From Ensifer sp. IC4062 (GTDB taxonomy: Bacteria; Pseudomonadota; Alphaproteobacteria; Rhizobiales; Rhizobiaceae), in the NCBI RefSeq assembly GCF_020193575.1, contig NZ_JADYVD010000009.1:62001-126000 (forward strand): a stretch of 64,000 nt of DNA, read 5' to 3'. Below are positions 11,227-41,700 of the stretch, piece by piece. The notes under the pieces are model-generated. The model did not search any database. It had not been told where the DNA came from and worked only from the letters and a program-made list of their open reading frames with translations. The translations under genes were made by a program, and so were the position numbers. Position 1 is the first letter of the stretch. Every line of letters starts with the position of its first letter.

Positions 11227-11353
11227 AGTGGCACGCCCAACGGGACTCGAACCCGTGTTTCCGCCGTGAAAGGGCGGCGTCCTAGACCGCTAGACGATGG
11301 GCGCCCAAGACGAGGTGGCTTATAGAGAAGCCTTTGGGTTCCCGCAAGTGATC
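11227..11353. repeat. Direct repeat unit 1 containing tRNA-Glu
   Basis: About 125 bases, almost identical to 11477-11603 (offset exactly 250). The repeat covers the whole tRNA gene plus roughly 45 bases on its 5' side, with scattered differences in the flank. Confidence 0.85.
11229..11304 (-). tRNA. tRNA-Glu (TTC), copy 1
   Basis: 76 nt including an encoded CCA. The acceptor stem pairs GCGCCCA with TGGGCGT, with a G-U at the first pair. The anticodon loop CTTTCAC is read on the minus strand with anticodon TTC, and the T loop is standard (GTTCGAG). Identical to copy 2. Confidence 0.95.
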
Positions 11354-11476: not shown

Positions 11477-11603
11477 AGTGGCACGCCCAACGGGACTCGA
11501 ACCCGTGTTTCCGCCGTGAAAGGGCGGCGTCCTAGACCGCTAGACGATGGGCGCCCAAGACGAGGTGGCTTATAGAGAGGCCTTTGGATTCCCGCAAGCG
11601 GCT
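11477..11603. repeat. Direct repeat unit 2 containing tRNA-Glu
   Basis: Second member of the 250-base-offset duplication. The flank shared with unit 1 continues past the tRNA 5' end and then diverges toward the M15 peptidase gene. Confidence 0.85.
11479..11554 (-). tRNA. tRNA-Glu (TTC), copy 2
   Basis: Same 76-nt sequence as copy 1, with encoded CCA and anticodon TTC. Being the promoter-proximal copy on the minus strand, it may be transcribed together with copy 1. Confidence 0.95.
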
Positions 11604-14074: not shown

Positions 14075-14653
14075 ATGGCGGATAGAACATCTTCGAAAGA
14101 CGTCATCCATAATGACGACTTTGGCAATGACGCCCTTGACCTCATCGAAATTACCGGCGTTATCAAGTGGTTCGACGTTGCTAAGGGCTTCGGCTTCATT
14201 GTGCCCGACAACGGCATGCAGGACGTATTGCTGCACGTTACTTGCCTGCGGCGCGATGGCTATCAGACTGTTCTCGAGGGAGCGCGCGTCGTTGCCCTTG
14301 TTCAGAAACGGGACCGCGGATACCAGGCTTTCCGCATTCTTTCCATGGACCAGTCGACGGCCGTTCATCCTTCGCAGCTCCCGCCGGTCAGAACACATGT
14401 TCAGGTCACGCCGACCAGTGGCTTGGAGCGCGTGCTCGTCAAGTGGTTCAACCGCACCAAAGGTTTTGGCTTCCTGACAAGGGGCGAAGGGACCGAAGAC
14501 ATCTTCGTGCATATGGAGACGCTGCGTCGTTTCGGGCTCACGGAACTGCGGCCCGGGCAGGTGGTGCTGGTTCGCTTCGGCGACGGCGAAAAGGGTCTCA
14601 TGGCTGCAGAGATTCATCCCGACGGCCCGACGCCAACCAACCGGTCGCACTGA
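14075..14653 (+). CDS. Cold-shock protein with two CSD domains
   Basis: 192 residues with two cold-shock domains instead of the usual single 70-residue one. The first (about residues 27-90) has GVIKWFDVAKGFGFIVPD; the second (about 118-185) has LVKWFNRTKGFGFLTRG followed by DIFVH. The first domain's RNP2-like segment reads DVLLHV, slightly altered. Such two-domain forms are common in alphaproteobacteria and bind single-stranded RNA or DNA. ATG 14075 follows GGGAG. The stop overlaps the ATG of the DUF192 gene (TGATG), so the two are translationally coupled. Confidence 0.9.
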   Translation: MADRTSSKDVIHNDDFGNDALDLIEITGVIKWFDVAKGFGFIVPDNGMQDVLLHVTCLRRDGYQTVLEGARVVALVQKRDRGYQAFRILSMDQSTAVHPSQLPPVRTHVQVTPTSGLERVLVKWFNRTKGFGFLTRGEGTEDIFVHMETLRRFGLTELRPGQVVLVRFGDGEKGLMAAEIHPDGPTPTNRSH

Positions 14654-20227: not shown

Positions 20228-20716
20228 CTATAGCGCCGCGCCCTCCGAGCCTGCCAATCCGAGAGCCAACGTCACATCGTTGATTATTCCAAAGCGGGCT
20301 TCAATCACTGCAATTTTCGCGGGAGTGTCGGCACAAGACGCCTCGATTTCCATGAACAATTGCTCGAAACCTCCTGGCGTGACGGTGCCGAACATCTGGC
20401 CCGGTTCGTCGCCTATGTTTCGCCAACTGTGTCGCACATGCGGCGGCAGAACGACCACTGTCCCTGGGGGTGCGTCGAACTTCTCATCACCGCATTGGAA
20501 ACGATAGAGTCCCCGGATAACGCGAAACACTTCGGTCTCTCGTGTGTGAGTGTGAGGAGCCGGGCCGTGCCCCGGCGGCGTGAAGGTTTCCCACATTCCG
20601 AATGCGCCGGAGGTCTCGGCGGCCGTGACATGGATAACAACCTTGGCCCCGAAAGGCGTTCTCGCTGTGCGCTCTCTGCCAGGCAAGGAGACAACTGCAG
20701 TCCGAAAAGACGACAT
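20228..20716 (-). CDS. Cupin domain protein (162 aa)
   Basis: A single cupin beta barrel. Motif 1 is HTHTRETEVFRVIRG (about 55-69) with two His and a Glu as metal ligands, and motif 2 is PPGTVVVLPPHVRHSWRN (about 82-99) with the final His. Both metal-binding motifs are complete. It could be a small-molecule dioxygenase, isomerase or sugar-binding protein; sequence alone does not choose. ATG 20716 lies seven bases after GGAGAG on the minus strand, better placed than the GTG at 20722. It is transcribed in the same direction as the protease but 300 bases upstream. Confidence 0.8.
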   Translation of the reverse strand: MSSFRTAVVSLPGRERTARTPFGAKVVIHVTAAETSGAFGMWETFTPPGHGPAPHTHTRETEVFRVIRGLYRFQCGDEKFDAPPGTVVVLPPHVRHSWRNIGDEPGQMFGTVTPGGFEQLFMEIEASCADTPAKIAVIEARFGIINDVTLALGLAGSEGAAL

Positions 20717-20912
20717 GGCCACCCTCTCCAGTCGGTTGTAATATGTATAGCAGGTTGCGGAACGGTAGTTAATCCACCGGTGCGGCCAGGCACGTAGGCA
20801 GCCTTCGCGAGACGCGTTTATCCATGTGCTCGGCCTCGACCACTAAAATCTGAGAGTTGAGCCCTGGCGATCGAACCGCCAATATATCTTCCGCCTAATT
20901 CGGGAGATGACC

Positions 20913-21047: not shown

Positions 21048-21633
21048 AAAGTCGCTGGCATTTCGATCTGTTGGTCGGCGTCAAACCGCCCCGTCTGTAG
21101 CGTGGTTCAGCTCCGGTTTTTCGCTTATGTCCTTTACGCGCTGCTGAACCGTGGTCGCACGATCCATTCTGCGCCGTGGTTTCATGAATTGCGCGAGGAC
21201 GGCGGCGCGACGATGGGGCGTCATCTGTGATCACTCTGCCAGCGGCACCCACCAATCAACAAAAAAGGCCGGGCTAAACCCGACCTTCCTGCAGCCATTG
21301 CCAGTACATCCGTGGTCAATGGCGATAGGCCTATATCCTTAGTGGCGGAACGTGACGAGAGCGTGACAATGCGTGATGCGATAAGTCGTCCCCTGGGGAC
21401 TGTTGGGGCGTCGCCTTGGATCACCGGAGTTTAGGCAATCCGCGCCTTGGGCTCAACTGCTGCAAGATGTGTCGAAAGGGAAATTCCGCAACGCGATCGG
21501 ACCTATGGCTGTGCCGCGTCGGACTTAGGTCCGATACCTGCCCCTATTTGGGCCGCCTTCGCCCACGTCGCCGGAACACTCTTGAACCCAGCGGGTTCGG
21601 CATAGGAAGGGATTTTTACTTGGAGTACTTCCG
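21048..21633. other. Intergenic region holding candidate small RNA A
   Basis: About 590 bases without a credible protein gene. The notable content is the minus-strand hairpin plus terminator at 21261-21330. The rest presumably carries the promoter of the DUF1236 gene. Confidence 0.5.
21261..21330 (-). ncRNA. Candidate small RNA A with conserved hairpin and terminator
   Basis: Read on the minus strand: a stem CCATTG/CAATGG (21295-21322) enclosing a loop with ACCACGGATGTACTGG, a short linker, then a Rho-independent terminator GGTCGGGTTTAGCCCGGCC followed by six T (21261-21287). The loop and terminator recur almost unchanged in candidate B at 40302-40400 on a different but still paired stem. 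Expected length is about 70-75 nt. Rfam families such as suhB/mmgR and the rhizobial alpha-r sRNAs are the natural ones to compare; identity with any is not established here. Confidence 0.6.
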
Positions 21634-22377
21634 ATGAAAGGTATTCTCATAAAGAGTGCAATTGCGTTGAGCCTGGGTGTAACCTACACGCCGGCTCTAG
21701 CGCAGACCGAGCAGCCGGCACAGGGGCAATCCACCGAATGCCCGGCAGGCACTGAATGTCCGCAAGGCGGTGCGCAGGGCCAGCAGCCCGATGCACAGGG
21801 CGGCGTAGAGCAGCCGGGTGGCGAAACCACCGGGCAGGGCCAGCAAGATCAGCCCGCGGACCAACAACAGCCTGACGCTGAGCAAGGCGGGACTGAGCAG
21901 CAGCAGCAACCCGATACAGGTACCTCGCAGCAACAGCAGCAGCAAGATCAGGCCGCTCCTGAAACGGAACAGCCAAATCAATCCGACCCCGAACAGCAGC
22001 CTAAGGAAGGACAAACAGACAGTCAGCAACCCGATCAGGGCCAGACCGAGCAGCAGCAGGGCGGAACCAGTCAGCCCGCTGAGGGTGAATCGCAGCAGAC
22101 CCAGCAGGGCCAAGCCGGTAGTGATGTCAACGTGACGGTTGAACAGAAGACGGAAATCACTCAGATCGTCAAAGAAGAGAATGTCGAGCCCGTCGAGGTT
22201 GATTTCAACGTGACGGTCGGTGCGGCCGTCCCCGAGACCGTAGAGCTGAGACCTCTGCCGCCGCGTATCGTGAAGATCGTGCCAAAATACGAGGGCTATC
22301 GCTTCTTCGTCTTGGCCGATGGCCGGATCGTAATTGTCGAACCCTCGACGCTTAAGGTCGTCGTGATCCTGGCATAA
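21634..22377 (+). CDS. Secreted Gln/Pro-rich protein with C-terminal DUF1236 (247 aa)
   Basis: Residues 1-24 are a Sec signal peptide ending ALAQ. Residues about 25-165 are extremely rich in Gln, Gly, Pro, Asp, Glu and Thr with runs of up to six Gln, so probably unstructured. Residues about 170-205 contain two strands with valine alternation (VNVTVEQKTEITQIV, VDFNVTVGAAVP). The last 45 residues (ELRPLPPRIVKIVPKYEGY, then FVLADGRIVIVEP) match the DUF1236 domain common in rhizobial exported proteins. Role unknown; surface or periplasmic location follows from the signal peptide. The expanded Gln tract is unusual. Confidence 0.75.
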   Translation: MKGILIKSAIALSLGVTYTPALAQTEQPAQGQSTECPAGTECPQGGAQGQQPDAQGGVEQPGGETTGQGQQDQPADQQQPDAEQGGTEQQQQPDTGTSQQQQQQDQAAPETEQPNQSDPEQQPKEGQTDSQQPDQGQTEQQQGGTSQPAEGESQQTQQGQAGSDVNVTVEQKTEITQIVKEENVEPVEVDFNVTVGAAVPETVELRPLPPRIVKIVPKYEGYRFFVLADGRIVIVEPSTLKVVVILA

Positions 22378-38993: not shown

Positions 38994-40286
38994 ATGTCCG
39001 AGATTTTTGTAATTTTCGCTTTGCTCTTGATCAACGCTTTCTTTGCGCTTTCGGAAATGGCAATTGTCTCGGCAAGCAAACCGCTGCTTCGCCAAATGGT
39101 CAAACAGGGAAATCGACGGGCGGAGGCCGCATTGAAGCTGGCCGAGGATCCGGGAAAGTTCCTCTCCACGGTGCAGGTCGGTATTACCCTCGTCGGCATC
39201 CTGGCGGGTGCCTATGGCGGCGCAACGATCGCCGCCAAGATAGCACCGTTCTTCGATGAGGTGGCTTGGATCCGGCCCTACGGCCATACCGTCGCCGTCG
39301 GACTGGTGGTGACACTCATCACCTTCCTTTCGGTGGTCATCGGCGAACTCATTCCGAAACAGCTTGCGCTCAGGAATTCCGAGGCGCTTGCGATGTTCGT
39401 TGCAACACCGATGACGTTGCTCTCCCGCATTTCGGCACCCGTCGTCTATCTCTTCGAGACCGCCGCTGCAGTGGCCATCCGCCTGTTCGGCATGCGTCCG
39501 GACGATCCGGATCACGTGACGGAAGAGGAAGTTCAGGCGATCATGGCGGAGGGCGTCGAAAGCGGCGCGATTGAAAAGACCGAGCATGAAATGCTCCGCC
39601 GGATCATTCGGCTTGGCGACCGCAACGTAAAGTCAATCATGACTCACCGGACGGAGATGCGCTTCATCGACGCCAATGACGATCTCGAAACCATCCGGCG
39701 CAAGGTCCGGGAGTTCGGTCACTCTCGCTATCCGGTCGTGGACGGTCCCACAGGCGATGTTCTCGGTGCGATTCTCGCCAAAGAGGTTCTGAACATGCCT
39801 GCAAACGCCTCCTTCGATCTGCATGGCCACATTCGGGATATCCTGACCTTGCCGGAGACCGCCTCGTGCCTAAAGGCGCTCGATGGGTTCAAGACAACGA
39901 GCATCGATATGGCGATGATCGTTGACGAGTACGGCAGCACGGAAGGGATTATCACAACGGCTGATATCTTAGAGGCGATCGTCGGCGTGCTGCCGTCGAA
40001 CTACGATGATATCGAGCATGCGCTCATCCGGGTCCGCGAAGACGGCAGCTATATGGTTGATGGGCGCACACCGATCGACGAGATTCATCTGGCAATTGGC
40101 ATCGAAGGCATCGATGCGGATGGCAATTTCGAGACGATCGCGGGTTTTCTCGTTCAGCAGCTGCGCAAGACGCCGGAGGAAGGCGACATCGCCGAGGCCC
40201 ATGGCTACCGTTTCGAGGTTGTCGACATGGACGGACGACGGATCGACAAGATTCTCGTCTCGCGCTGCGTTGACGATGCAGCCTGA
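38994..40286 (+). CDS. CNNM/HlyC-CorC family membrane protein with CBS domains
   Basis: 430 residues. The N-terminal DUF21/CNNM domain has about four hydrophobic segments (IFVIFALLLINAFFALSEMA at the start, with FALSEMA typical). Two CBS domains (about 215-340) include IMTHRTEMRFID and VDEYGSTEGIIT, and the C-terminal CorC_HlyC domain (about 345-425) includes MVDGRTPIDE. Family members are linked to Mg2+ or Co2+ efflux and tolerance. Haemolysin naming is historical. It ends just before the bidirectional hairpin at 40302. Confidence 0.88.
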   Translation: MSEIFVIFALLLINAFFALSEMAIVSASKPLLRQMVKQGNRRAEAALKLAEDPGKFLSTVQVGITLVGILAGAYGGATIAAKIAPFFDEVAWIRPYGHTVAVGLVVTLITFLSVVIGELIPKQLALRNSEALAMFVATPMTLLSRISAPVVYLFETAAAVAIRLFGMRPDDPDHVTEEEVQAIMAEGVESGAIEKTEHEMLRRIIRLGDRNVKSIMTHRTEMRFIDANDDLETIRRKVREFGHSRYPVVDGPTGDVLGAILAKEVLNMPANASFDLHGHIRDILTLPETASCLKALDGFKTTSIDMAMIVDEYGSTEGIITTADILEAIVGVLPSNYDDIEHALIRVREDGSYMVDGRTPIDEIHLAIGIEGIDADGNFETIAGFLVQQLRKTPEEGDIAEAHGYRFEVVDMDGRRIDKILVSRCVDDAA

Positions 40287-40301: not shown

Positions 40302-40400
40302 AAAAACGCAAAAGGCCGGGCGATACCCGACCTTTCCTCAAACTGTCCTGGCGCCTGCTAGTTCATCCGTAGTCAGCCGCCGGGACAGATGATTGAGCGA
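40302..40400 (-). ncRNA. Candidate small RNA B with conserved hairpin and terminator
   Basis: On the minus strand: stem GGCGGCTG/CAGGCGCC (40350-40381, one mismatch) with loop ACTACGGATGAACTAG, a linker, then terminator GGTCGGGTATCGCCCGGCC plus TTTT (40302-40334). The loop and terminator match candidate A at 21261, while the stem bases differ but still pair. A promoter-like CTTGTC (40435-40440) and GTATAG (40409-40414) lie upstream on the minus strand, with a long 20-base gap. Predicted length is about 100 nt. The terminator hairpin may also serve the plus-strand CNNM gene. Confidence 0.6.
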
Positions 40401-40488
40401 GTTCCTTGCTATACGCTTTGCATGTCTGTCGTATGACAAGGCGGCGGAAATCTCTGGAGAGCGCGACTGCGGGGGGCTCGCTGAGGCT

Positions 40489-41700
40489 TCAGCGCAGCCG
40501 CAGGACGTTGCATGGATCGCCGCTTGAAGCGGCTGCGGCATGCGGCGCGCGAACGATGAGCCCGTCGGATTGCGCGAAGATATTCATCATCGAAGAATCC
40601 TGACGCGCGAATGGATGGGCGAGGAGCGAGCCGTCCGGATCGACCGTCAGTCGCGCGCGGACATAATCCTGGCGGCGGTCGTTGGCGGGCAAGGGGGTCG
40701 CAAGTCGTGCCGTCGTCATCCGCGAACGAGGCGGTAGATGGGCCAGATGCCGTGTCAGCGGCTCAAGAAAGAGCAGCGCGCACACGAGGCTCGAGACAGG
40801 ATTTCCCGGTAAGCCGAGGACGGTCATGCCGGCGAGCTCGCCGACCATCAGCGGCTTGCCCGGGCGCATGGCGATGCGCCAGAAATCCAGCACCATGCCG
40901 CGCGATAGAAGAGTCGATTGAACGAGGTCATGGTCGCCGACGGAGGCTCCGCCGAGCGTCACCAGGACATCTGCGCCGGCCGCTTGAGCCTTGGCGACAG
41001 CAGCCGAAATTGCCGCCTCGTTGTCCGGCACAATGCCAAGATCAAGGAATTCGCCACCGTTTTCGCGTGCAATGGCGGCCACACCATAAGTATTCGATGC
41101 GATGATCTGGTCCGCACCAGGGGAACTTCCCGGTGGCAATAACTCGTCGCCGGTGGCGATGATAGCAATCTTCGGTCTCTCGAACACCCGCAGGCTCTCA
41201 TGGCTCATGCCTGCGGCGAGCGTCAGTCGCCCGGCGTCGAGCACGCTGCCTGCGGCCAGACCGATGTCGCCCTCTACGAAATCCTGCCCCGCAAGCCGGA
41301 TATGACGACCCCTTGCCGGGGCGAACAGCGTGCGGATCTTTCCGCCCGAAAGCTTTTCGGTGTCCTCCTGGATGATGACTGTGTCCGCACCGGCGGGCAG
41401 GGGGGCGCCAGTAAAGATACGAACGGCCTCGCCGGCACGAACCTCTCCCCGAAATCCATGCCCCGCGGCCGACTGGCCGGTCACAACAAGCTGCGCGCCT
41501 ATGTTGACGATGTCCTCGTGGCGAACCGCATAACCATCCATCGCCGAATTGTCGAAAGCGGGATGGGTGACCCGCGCGGTGATATCCTCAGCCAGCACGC
41601 GGCCGAAGCAATCGTGCAGGGCGAGCTTTTCTGTCCGCCGATGCGGGCGAGCTTTGTCAATTACCCTGGCGAGTGCGTCCTCAACCGAAAGCAGCGACAT
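40489..41700 (-). CDS. moeA: Molybdopterin molybdenumtransferase MoeA
   Basis: 403 residues, normal for MoeA. The N-terminus LSVEDALARVIDKA, then HPAFDNSAMDGYAVR (45-59), the GTGDEL/ATGDELLPPG segment (about 183-192) and VTLGGASVGDHDLVQ (about 245-259) are the signature regions. It inserts molybdate into adenylylated molybdopterin, the last step of molybdenum cofactor formation. Its ATG overlaps the moaC stop by one base (TGATG). Last gene of the ppiD-trpD-trpC-moaC-moeA group. Confidence 0.95.
   Translation of the reverse strand: MSLLSVEDALARVIDKARPHRRTEKLALHDCFGRVLAEDITARVTHPAFDNSAMDGYAVRHEDIVNIGAQLVVTGQSAAGHGFRGEVRAGEAVRIFTGAPLPAGADTVIIQEDTEKLSGGKIRTLFAPARGRHIRLAGQDFVEGDIGLAAGSVLDAGRLTLAAGMSHESLRVFERPKIAIIATGDELLPPGSSPGADQIIASNTYGVAAIARENGGEFLDLGIVPDNEAAISAAVAKAQAAGADVLVTLGGASVGDHDLVQSTLLSRGMVLDFWRIAMRPGKPLMVGELAGMTVLGLPGNPVSSLVCALLFLEPLTRHLAHLPPRSRMTTARLATPLPANDRRQDYVRARLTVDPDGSLLAHPFARQDSSMMNIFAQSDGLIVRAPHAAAASSGDPCNVLRLR

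What the first reader, a model, noticed from the sequence alone, without database searches (positions are those of the whole stretch)
21261..21330. Candidate small RNA A: conserved loop on a paired stem plus terminator
Seen on the minus strand: CCATTG/CAATGG stem enclosing ACCACGGATGTACTGG, then a GGTCGGG...CCCGGCC terminator with six T. The same loop and terminator recur at 40302-40400 (B) with a different but still complementary stem, i.e. apparent covariation between two copies in one window. No protein gene covers either. That combination is strong evidence of a structured RNA family; its size (about 70 nt) recalls rhizobial trans-acting sRNAs such as MmgR, but identity is untested.
Basis: partly seen in the sequence, partly recalled or inferred. 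Interest (0 to 1): 0.62.

Follow-up and report, generated by a model that had tools for sequence, protein, structure and literature searches.

The report
Known rhizobial small-RNA hairpin family (ar35)
The two stretches are copies of a small-RNA element already described in nitrogen-fixing bacteria, a short hairpin with a nearly fixed loop that sits at the ends of many cold-shock messages and of stand-alone small RNAs, and whose job is still unknown.

Summary
A (core 21299-21318, minus) and B (core 40356-40375, minus) are hairpins with nearly the same loop on different, complementary stems, each followed by an intrinsic terminator. It is alpha-r35 (Rfam RF02346, ar35), SmrB35/SmelB053 in Sinorhizobium meliloti. 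A and B score 39.8 and 34.4 bits, under Rfam's cut-off of 45 (E 2.6e-6, 3.6e-5); a model built here scores them 63.0 and 59.7. The genome holds seven copies, two directly behind cold-shock genes. Of 235 exact-core copies examined, 126 have a cold-shock gene upstream. A 2011 paper (PMC3927594) already described the GGAUGUA loop, the multiple copies and the cold-shock 3'-UTR relatives, so A and B are new members of a known kind. Possibly new: copies in phage-like contigs (one behind a DNA primase-polymerase), a recurrent U-G wobble in the terminator stem, and clear covariation in the apical stem. Function is unproven. I favour a 3'-terminal module that contacts a trans partner, with free RNAs such as A and B as a decoy form.

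The parts
21294..21323 (-). RNA A, conserved hairpin: stem GCCATTG/CAATGGC, bulged A, CCA/TGG, loop CGGATGTAC (21312-21304)
   Evidence: sequence, fold, RF02346 39.8 bits, model R1 63.0 bits, 92-93% identity over about 120 bases in the two nearest genus relatives
21261..21290 (-). RNA A, intrinsic terminator AGGAAGGTCGGG-TTTAG-CCCGGCCTTTTTT with a T-G wobble pair in the stem
21324..21371 (-). upstream region of A, conserved in orthologues (TGTCACGCTC..CGT.ACGTTC); presumed promoter
   Evidence: alignment with 6 relatives; the simple sigma-70 scan found 0 promoters
40337..40400 (-). RNA B, conserved hairpin: CTA/TAG apical stem, loop CGGATGAAC (40369-40361), long enclosing stem
   Evidence: sequence, fold, RF02346 34.4 bits, R1 59.7 bits, orthologues in the genus
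40310..40336 (-). RNA B, intrinsic terminator GAAAGGTCGGG-TAT-CGCCCGGCCTTTT
40401..40445 (-). upstream region of B with conserved TTGTCATACGACAGACATGG...GTATAG; presumed promoter or regulator site (TGTC-N4-GACA palindrome)
   Evidence: alignment with 11 relatives, of which L337 and L338 align only in part; the simple scan found 0 promoters

Best explanation
A and B are stand-alone small-RNA genes of the alpha-r35 (SmrB35/SmelB053) family. Each ends in the family's module: a hairpin with a bulged A and a nine-base loop CGGAUG-U/A/G-AC, then a terminator stem GGUCGGG/CCCGGCC. The same module forms the 3' end of many cold-shock mRNAs and lies behind some other stress and phage-like genes. Shown here: predicted structure, covariation, copy number, spread and contexts. 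Inferred: that A and B are transcribed; and that the conserved loop on a hypervariable stem is the contact site of one trans partner, most likely an RNA-binding or RNA-decay factor. At mRNA ends it would act in cis on stability, and free copies such as A and B would compete for the same partner. The confidence given is for the family identification; the partner/decoy mechanism gets about 0.35.
For: Identity: RF02346 is the only credible Rfam match. Three of the six exact copies of this genome pass its gathering score (L001 50.0, L002 45.7, L003 64.3) and L006 reaches 43.8. R1 hits on S. meliloti 1021 pSymB, 577762-577866 and 574655-574761, fall inside published SmelB053 (577730-577873) and SmelB050 (574628-574763). 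Structure: the apical stem is in the predicted fold of 125 of 144 non-redundant copies, against 29 of 144 after one shuffle of the flanks. Own flanks pair better than swapped ones over the set. Context: a cold-shock gene upstream on the same strand within 400 bases in 126 of 235 copies, in 115 of them within 40 bases of the aligned Csp end. Partner idea: in the 33 listed rows that differ from the consensus, the five loop bases GGAUG carry 5 changes in all, while the seventh loop base carries 20. Published co-precipitation did not recover SmrB35 with Hfq (PMC2848018, passages).
Against: A and B fall below Rfam's cut-off, and A shows at most a 4-pair helix where the family has its first stem-loop. 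For A alone the flank-swap test is not striking (18% of swapped flanks pair as well; B 0%). Partner and decoy role have no direct evidence. Only 4 of 29 csp genes tested (the best-scoring one of each of 29 genomes) carry the module, and 2 of 6 cold-shock genes here, so it is not a general csp feature. The genome has no ProQ/FinO-domain protein, an obvious candidate partner. The Hfq paper itself says that the missing SmrB35 signal may mean low affinity. No target complement was enriched, but that test was weak.
Confidence: 0.92

Rival explanations
1. A and B are ordinary base-pairing sRNAs: the loop GGAUGUA is a seed that pairs with a few target mRNAs; the cold-shock 3'-UTR copies are released as 3'-UTR-derived sRNAs with the same seed.
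For: Conserved loop on variable stems is the layout of the alpha-r14 (NfeR1) family, whose loops pair with targets (PMC7143759, passages); terminator with U tail.
Against: No enrichment of complementary 7-mers near 716 gene starts in fetched loci (z 0.02 to 0.80; small, biased sample); SmrB35 not recovered with Hfq in one co-precipitation.
Confidence: 0.35
2. The module is only a strong terminator and stabilising 3' end, copied about because it works well; the loop has no partner.
For: TTTT within 90 bases downstream in 216 of 235 copies (6 of 6, 110 of 123, 100 of 106); copies behind unrelated genes.
Against: A terminator does not need a conserved loop in an upstream hairpin whose stems are free to change.
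Confidence: 0.15
3. Dispersed repeat (mobile, REP-like) without cellular function.
For: Seven copies here, up to 14 in a family genome, copies on plasmids and in viral contigs; published association with mobile elements.
Against: Outside core and terminator the copies differ widely while the stems stay paired; A and B keep their places among relatives.
Confidence: 0.08
4. MmgR/suhB-type sRNA.
For: Size of about 70-80 nt only.
Against: No RF00519 match in the A or B stretch at E up to 5.
Confidence: 0.01
5. Short ORF or leader peptide from the ATG in the loop.
For: Loop holds ATG; in A it opens a frame of 11 codons (read).
Against: In B and two other copies the T-A variant makes the third codon a stop, so no peptide is conserved across the family.
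Confidence: 0.01

Closest known systems
alpha-r35 family (Rfam RF02346; SmrB35 = SmelB053 on S. meliloti pSymB)
   Same: Hairpin with GGAUGUA loop, terminator, intergenic stand-alone gene, several copies per genome; A and B hit the model with E 2.6e-6 and 3.6e-5
   Different: A and B score below the gathering cut-off; A has no proper first stem-loop, unlike the 139-144 nt SmrB35; B has loop GGAUGAA
SmelC691 (S. meliloti chromosome, 83 nt; grouped with SmelB053 in PMC3927594)
   Same: Short form without the first stem-loop, as A seems to be (PMC3927594; length from PMC2873474 table)
   Different: Orthology to A not tested by sequence. A stretch of G406, which I take for S. meliloti because one match has the coordinates of hit H60, shows none of A's neighbour genes
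Cold-shock gene 3'-UTR relatives (29 of 33 3'-UTRs in PMC3927594)
   Same: Same hairpin and terminator; two of this genome's copies are of this type (L002, L003)
   Different: A and B are not behind cold-shock genes: A lies between cupin and DUF1236 genes, B between CNNM/CorC and moeA
alpha-r14 family (NfeR1/SmelA075)
   Same: Conserved loop on hypervariable stems, several copies per genome (PMC7143759 and PMC3927594 passages)
   Different: Loop there is CCUCCUCCC (anti-Shine-Dalgarno); here CGGAUGUAC
MmgR/suhB (RF00519)
   Same: Rhizobial sRNA of similar size
   Different: No match in the A or B stretch

Membership tests
alpha-r35 / RF02346 | Rfam gathering score of 45 bits | tested here: not met
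   A 39.8, B 34.4; copies L001, L002, L003 of the same genome meet it. I therefore file A and B as relatives of the family in the wider sense of PMC3927594, not as Rfam members by score
alpha-r35 / RF02346 | significant match over the whole model | tested here: met
   A E 2.6e-6, B E 3.6e-5, both reported as model 1-144 of 144; in A 41 model positions of the first stem-loop have no counterpart
SmelB053 family in the wider sense (PMC3927594) | second stem-loop with loop GGAUGUA | tested here: met
   A identical; B GGAUGAA, a variant shared with its orthologues, which show A or G there
SmelB053 family in the wider sense (PMC3927594) | third stem-loop = Rho-independent terminator | tested here: met
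SmelB053 family in the wider sense (PMC3927594) | first stem-loop (variable, sometimes completely missing) | tested here: inconclusive
   A: only a 4-pair helix upstream in the predicted fold and a short stem in the Rfam alignment; B: a partly mispaired stem in the Rfam alignment; transcript starts unknown
SmelB053 family in the wider sense (PMC3927594) | expressed as a discrete transcript | not testable with these tools
   no RNA data for this genome; relatives detected in S. meliloti
suhB/MmgR RF00519 | match to the family model | tested here: not met

The most novel reading that the evidence does not exclude
The hairpin plus GGUCGGG terminator is one portable 3'-end signal read by an unknown rhizobial RNA-binding or decay factor. 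Cold-shock and stress mRNAs use it in cis, stand-alone RNAs such as A and B titrate the factor, and temperate phages have taken the signal over for their own genes (cold-shock genes and a primase-polymerase). If so, one RNA-protein pair sets mRNA fate across much of the order and is a phage target.
Probability: 0.15. Interest if true: 0.65.

Novelty: new member of a known kind. Interest (0 to 1): 0.3.

Why it matters
It settles the finding: very likely a real structured RNA, of a family described between 2007 and 2011 for which I found no proven function. The larger catalogue (235 exact copies; 145 of 199 family genomes with a model match) and the covariation show which bases to change first, and the link to cold-shock mRNAs and phage-like genes makes a binding-partner search worthwhile.

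Tried and rejected
MmgR/suhB identity: no match. Peptide from the loop ATG: rejected because T-A variants create a stop. Seed-target search by complementary k-mers near 716 gene starts of fetched loci: nothing enriched; weak test. ProQ/FinO protein as partner: none in the genome. Isolated phages: blastn of A against 50,697 phage records gave 51 records; the 30 shown are all 26-base matches at E 10, none from a rhizobial phage. Simple sigma-70 scan found no promoter for A or B. Synteny of A with a stretch of G406: none of the 19 window proteins tested matched it. The flank-swap test is support only: median rank 0.09, 37.5% of 144 at or below 5%, but A itself at 18% and L001 at 13%. Viral neighbours: 12 of 20 proteins tested from six viral loci have a PHROG match, several of kinds that hosts also have. 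PMC5928217 (passages) was looked at for csp 3'-UTR RNAs and not used. Literature: searches found nothing for the names tried; one search listed mostly unrelated papers; two searches found the papers that describe the family; one search listed four papers and two, of which I did not open PMC4347634, PMC7237705 and PMC10503654.

Rows dropped before counts: one search dropped copies with under 30 bases of 5' flank, 24 copies without a terminator by its stricter rule, and near-duplicates, leaving 144 of 235 (101 own or genome, 43 viral). One search aligned 86 of those 101; left out were 12 longer than 104 bases and three with odd ends (L024, L027, L124), and the 43 viral ones. The list of 33 differing rows is what one search showed, not all there were.

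Full report
What is there. On the minus strand A is a hairpin GCCAUUG-A-CCA-CGGAUGUAC-UGG-CAAUGGC, then three bases, then an intrinsic terminator. B has CUA/UAG in place of CCA/UGG, loop CGGAUGAAC, a longer enclosing stem and the same kind of terminator. Predicted energies are well below shuffles (A z -3.1, B z -5.2). The shared core is TGACYACGGATGWACTRGCA.

Is it more than chance? The core has 6 exact places in the 7.1 Mb genome and the reversed control has none. In 199 genomes of the order an 18-base version with at most one mismatch has 74 places in 40 genomes (62 without mismatch), against 9 places of the reversed pattern. In 25 genomes of the genus the 20-mer with at most three mismatches has 179 places against 6 reversed, and all 25 genomes have it. 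A covariance model built here (R1, from 86 sequences) finds 7 clear copies in this genome; the eighth-ranked place drops to 22.7 bits. It matches 145 of 199 family genomes at E up to 1e-4, with up to 14 copies. R1 was trained on sequences of the same group, so that count is not independent proof; the pattern counts are.

Structure. Among 235 exact copies (6 own, 123 from genome contigs, 106 from viral contigs) the pattern allows four combinations at one stem pair; 232 are C-G, 3 are T-A, none is C-A or T-G. The seventh copy of this genome, found only by the model, has CCG/CGG in the apical stem, a second compensated pair. In 144 non-redundant copies the apical stem is part of the predicted fold in 125, and at least six enclosing pairs are present in 123; after one shuffle of the flanks, 29 and 28. 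The enclosing stems differ between copies while staying paired: own 5' and 3' flanks pair better than swapped ones over the set (median rank 0.09), although A by itself is unremarkable in that test (18%) and B is extreme (0%).

Where the core varies. Of the rows that one search lists, 33 differ from the consensus. Six change only the seventh loop base (T to G), and seven combine the compensated T-A stem pair with an A or G at that loop base. The other 20 change elsewhere, and some break a stem pair (for example ACCGG for ACTGG in two one-mismatch copies, TAACC in two); some of the three-mismatch rows may be chance. Counted by position, the five loop bases GGAUG carry 5 changes in the 33 rows and the seventh loop base carries 20. 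So GGAUG is the fixed part and the loop as a whole is not invariant.

The terminator may be part of the element. The stem GGTCGG...CCGGCCTTTT, with a U-G wobble, occurs 52 times in 939 kb of fetched loci, and all 52 lie within 80 bases behind a hairpin core; the all-Watson-Crick version occurs 19 times, 11 behind the core. Those loci were chosen for holding the hairpin, so the telling figure is the zero elsewhere. In the 86-row alignment that pair is U-G in 64 and C-G in 20. Shared descent of the copies could also explain this.

What it is. Rfam finds one credible match for both, RF02346 ar35, at 39.8 and 34.4 bits against a gathering score of 45. Three other copies of this genome pass and one just misses at 43.8. 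The link to the literature is by coordinates: R1 hits on S. meliloti 1021 pSymB at 577762-577866 and 574655-574761 lie inside SmelB053/SmrB35 (577730-577873) and SmelB050 (574628-574763), as tabulated in PMC2873474. I saw passages of the papers, not whole texts; of PMC3927594 I also read part 1 of section 19. PMC3927594 (2011) describes this family: SmelB050, SmelB053 and SmelC691, a first stem-loop that is variable or missing, a second with loop motif GGAUGUA, a third that is a terminator, several copies per genome, and 33 related 3'-UTRs of which 29 belong to cold-shock genes. It proposes Hfq-dependent 3'-end regulation and an 'interceptor' role for the free RNAs. PMC2780559 reports SmrB35 as a 139-nt transcript with sigma-70 promoter and terminator signatures, about 4-fold up with luteolin and not detectable in nodules. 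PMC2848018 saw no SmrB35 signal with tagged Hfq and reads this as absence or very low affinity. So the finding belongs to a known family, and A resembles the short SmelC691 form.

Context here. A lies between a cupin gene (20228-20722, minus) and a DUF1236 gene (21634-22377, plus); B between a CNNM/CorC gene (38994-40286, plus) and moeA (40489-41700, minus). Both are conserved in place: relatives G415, G401, G418 and G407 carry A and B about 19-20 kb apart as here, and G396 about 29 kb apart (coordinates). The neighbour genes were checked for both loci in G415 and for A in G401, and match. By eye, conservation covers hairpin, terminator and an upstream block and falls off outside, as expected of stand-alone genes with promoters; the simple promoter scan found none. 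Near-identical A copies lie on Sinorhizobium plasmids (up to 98.5% over 68 bases), and 410 of 72,556 plasmid records have a match at E up to 1.

Context elsewhere. A cold-shock gene lies upstream on the same strand, within 400 bases, in 2 of 6 own copies, 74 of 123 genome copies and 50 of 106 viral-contig copies; in 115 of these 126 it ends within 40 bases by the alignment. The reverse does not hold: 2 of 6 cold-shock genes of this genome carry the module, and 4 of 29 csp genes tested, the best-scoring one of each of 29 other genomes. In several of those genomes another csp gene does, by adjoining coordinates (for example G206:C93, G023:C1326, G226:C1, G215:C2). Other upstream ORFs, called mechanically, include CsbD, lipocalin, DUF892, RhuM and a Prim-Pol primase-polymerase. 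The primase case (L221, one of four contigs whose upstream ORFs cluster) sits beside phage-type DNA methyltransferases, and a cold-shock copy (L150) lies in one stretch with an endolysin and an exonuclease. Against this, 8 of 20 proteins tested from six viral loci have no PHROG match, IMG/VR contigs can include host DNA, and no named rhizobial phage record appeared among the rows shown. Phage carriage is likely, not proven. PMC3927594 shows no occurrence of the word phage; I made no wider search of that point.

How it most likely works. Shown: a module with conserved loop and free stems, placed before terminators. Inferred: transcription of A and B, and a trans partner for the loop. Between a protein or decay factor and an mRNA target I hold the odds about even (0.35 each). 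For the first: one loop serves both mRNA ends and free RNAs, Hfq did not visibly retain SmrB35, and no target complement stood out (weak). ProQ is absent here. This is close to the 2011 'interceptor' proposal; I add data but no proof.

Verdict. Correctly seen; identity corrected from MmgR-like to alpha-r35; ordinary as a discovery, open as to function.

Noticed in passing
L221:686-705 (minus), also L161, L163, L195: The hairpin and terminator lie 48-51 bases behind upstream ORFs that cluster together; in L221 this ORF is a Prim-Pol primase-polymerase, beside phage-type DNA methyltransferases in a viral contig.
   Followed up: partly
L130:1007-1026 (minus) and L209:4507-4526 (+): Two viral contigs hold copies that closely resemble A, down to the ATGGCTGCAGGAAGG or ATGGTTGCAGGAAGG spacer.
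   Followed up: partly
L056:6605-6710 and L064:6036-6055: Two exact copies 86 bases apart, both counted as behind a cold-shock gene (L056), and one exact copy with two degenerate ones nearby (L064): local duplication of the hairpin.
   Followed up: no
window 14075-14653 (+): A 192-residue protein with two cold-shock domains lies 6.6 kb from A; no module behind it.
   Followed up: partly
window 40420-40439 (minus): Conserved palindrome TGTC-N4-GACA upstream of B, possible regulator site; a LysR-type site is published for the SmrB35 promoter.
   Followed up: no
window 11229-11304 and 11479-11554 (minus): Two equal-scoring tRNA-Glu(ttc) genes 250 bases apart.
   Followed up: no
loci L007-L126: The GGTCGG..CCGGCCTTTT terminator with a U-G wobble occurred 52 times and always behind the hairpin.
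   Followed up: partly
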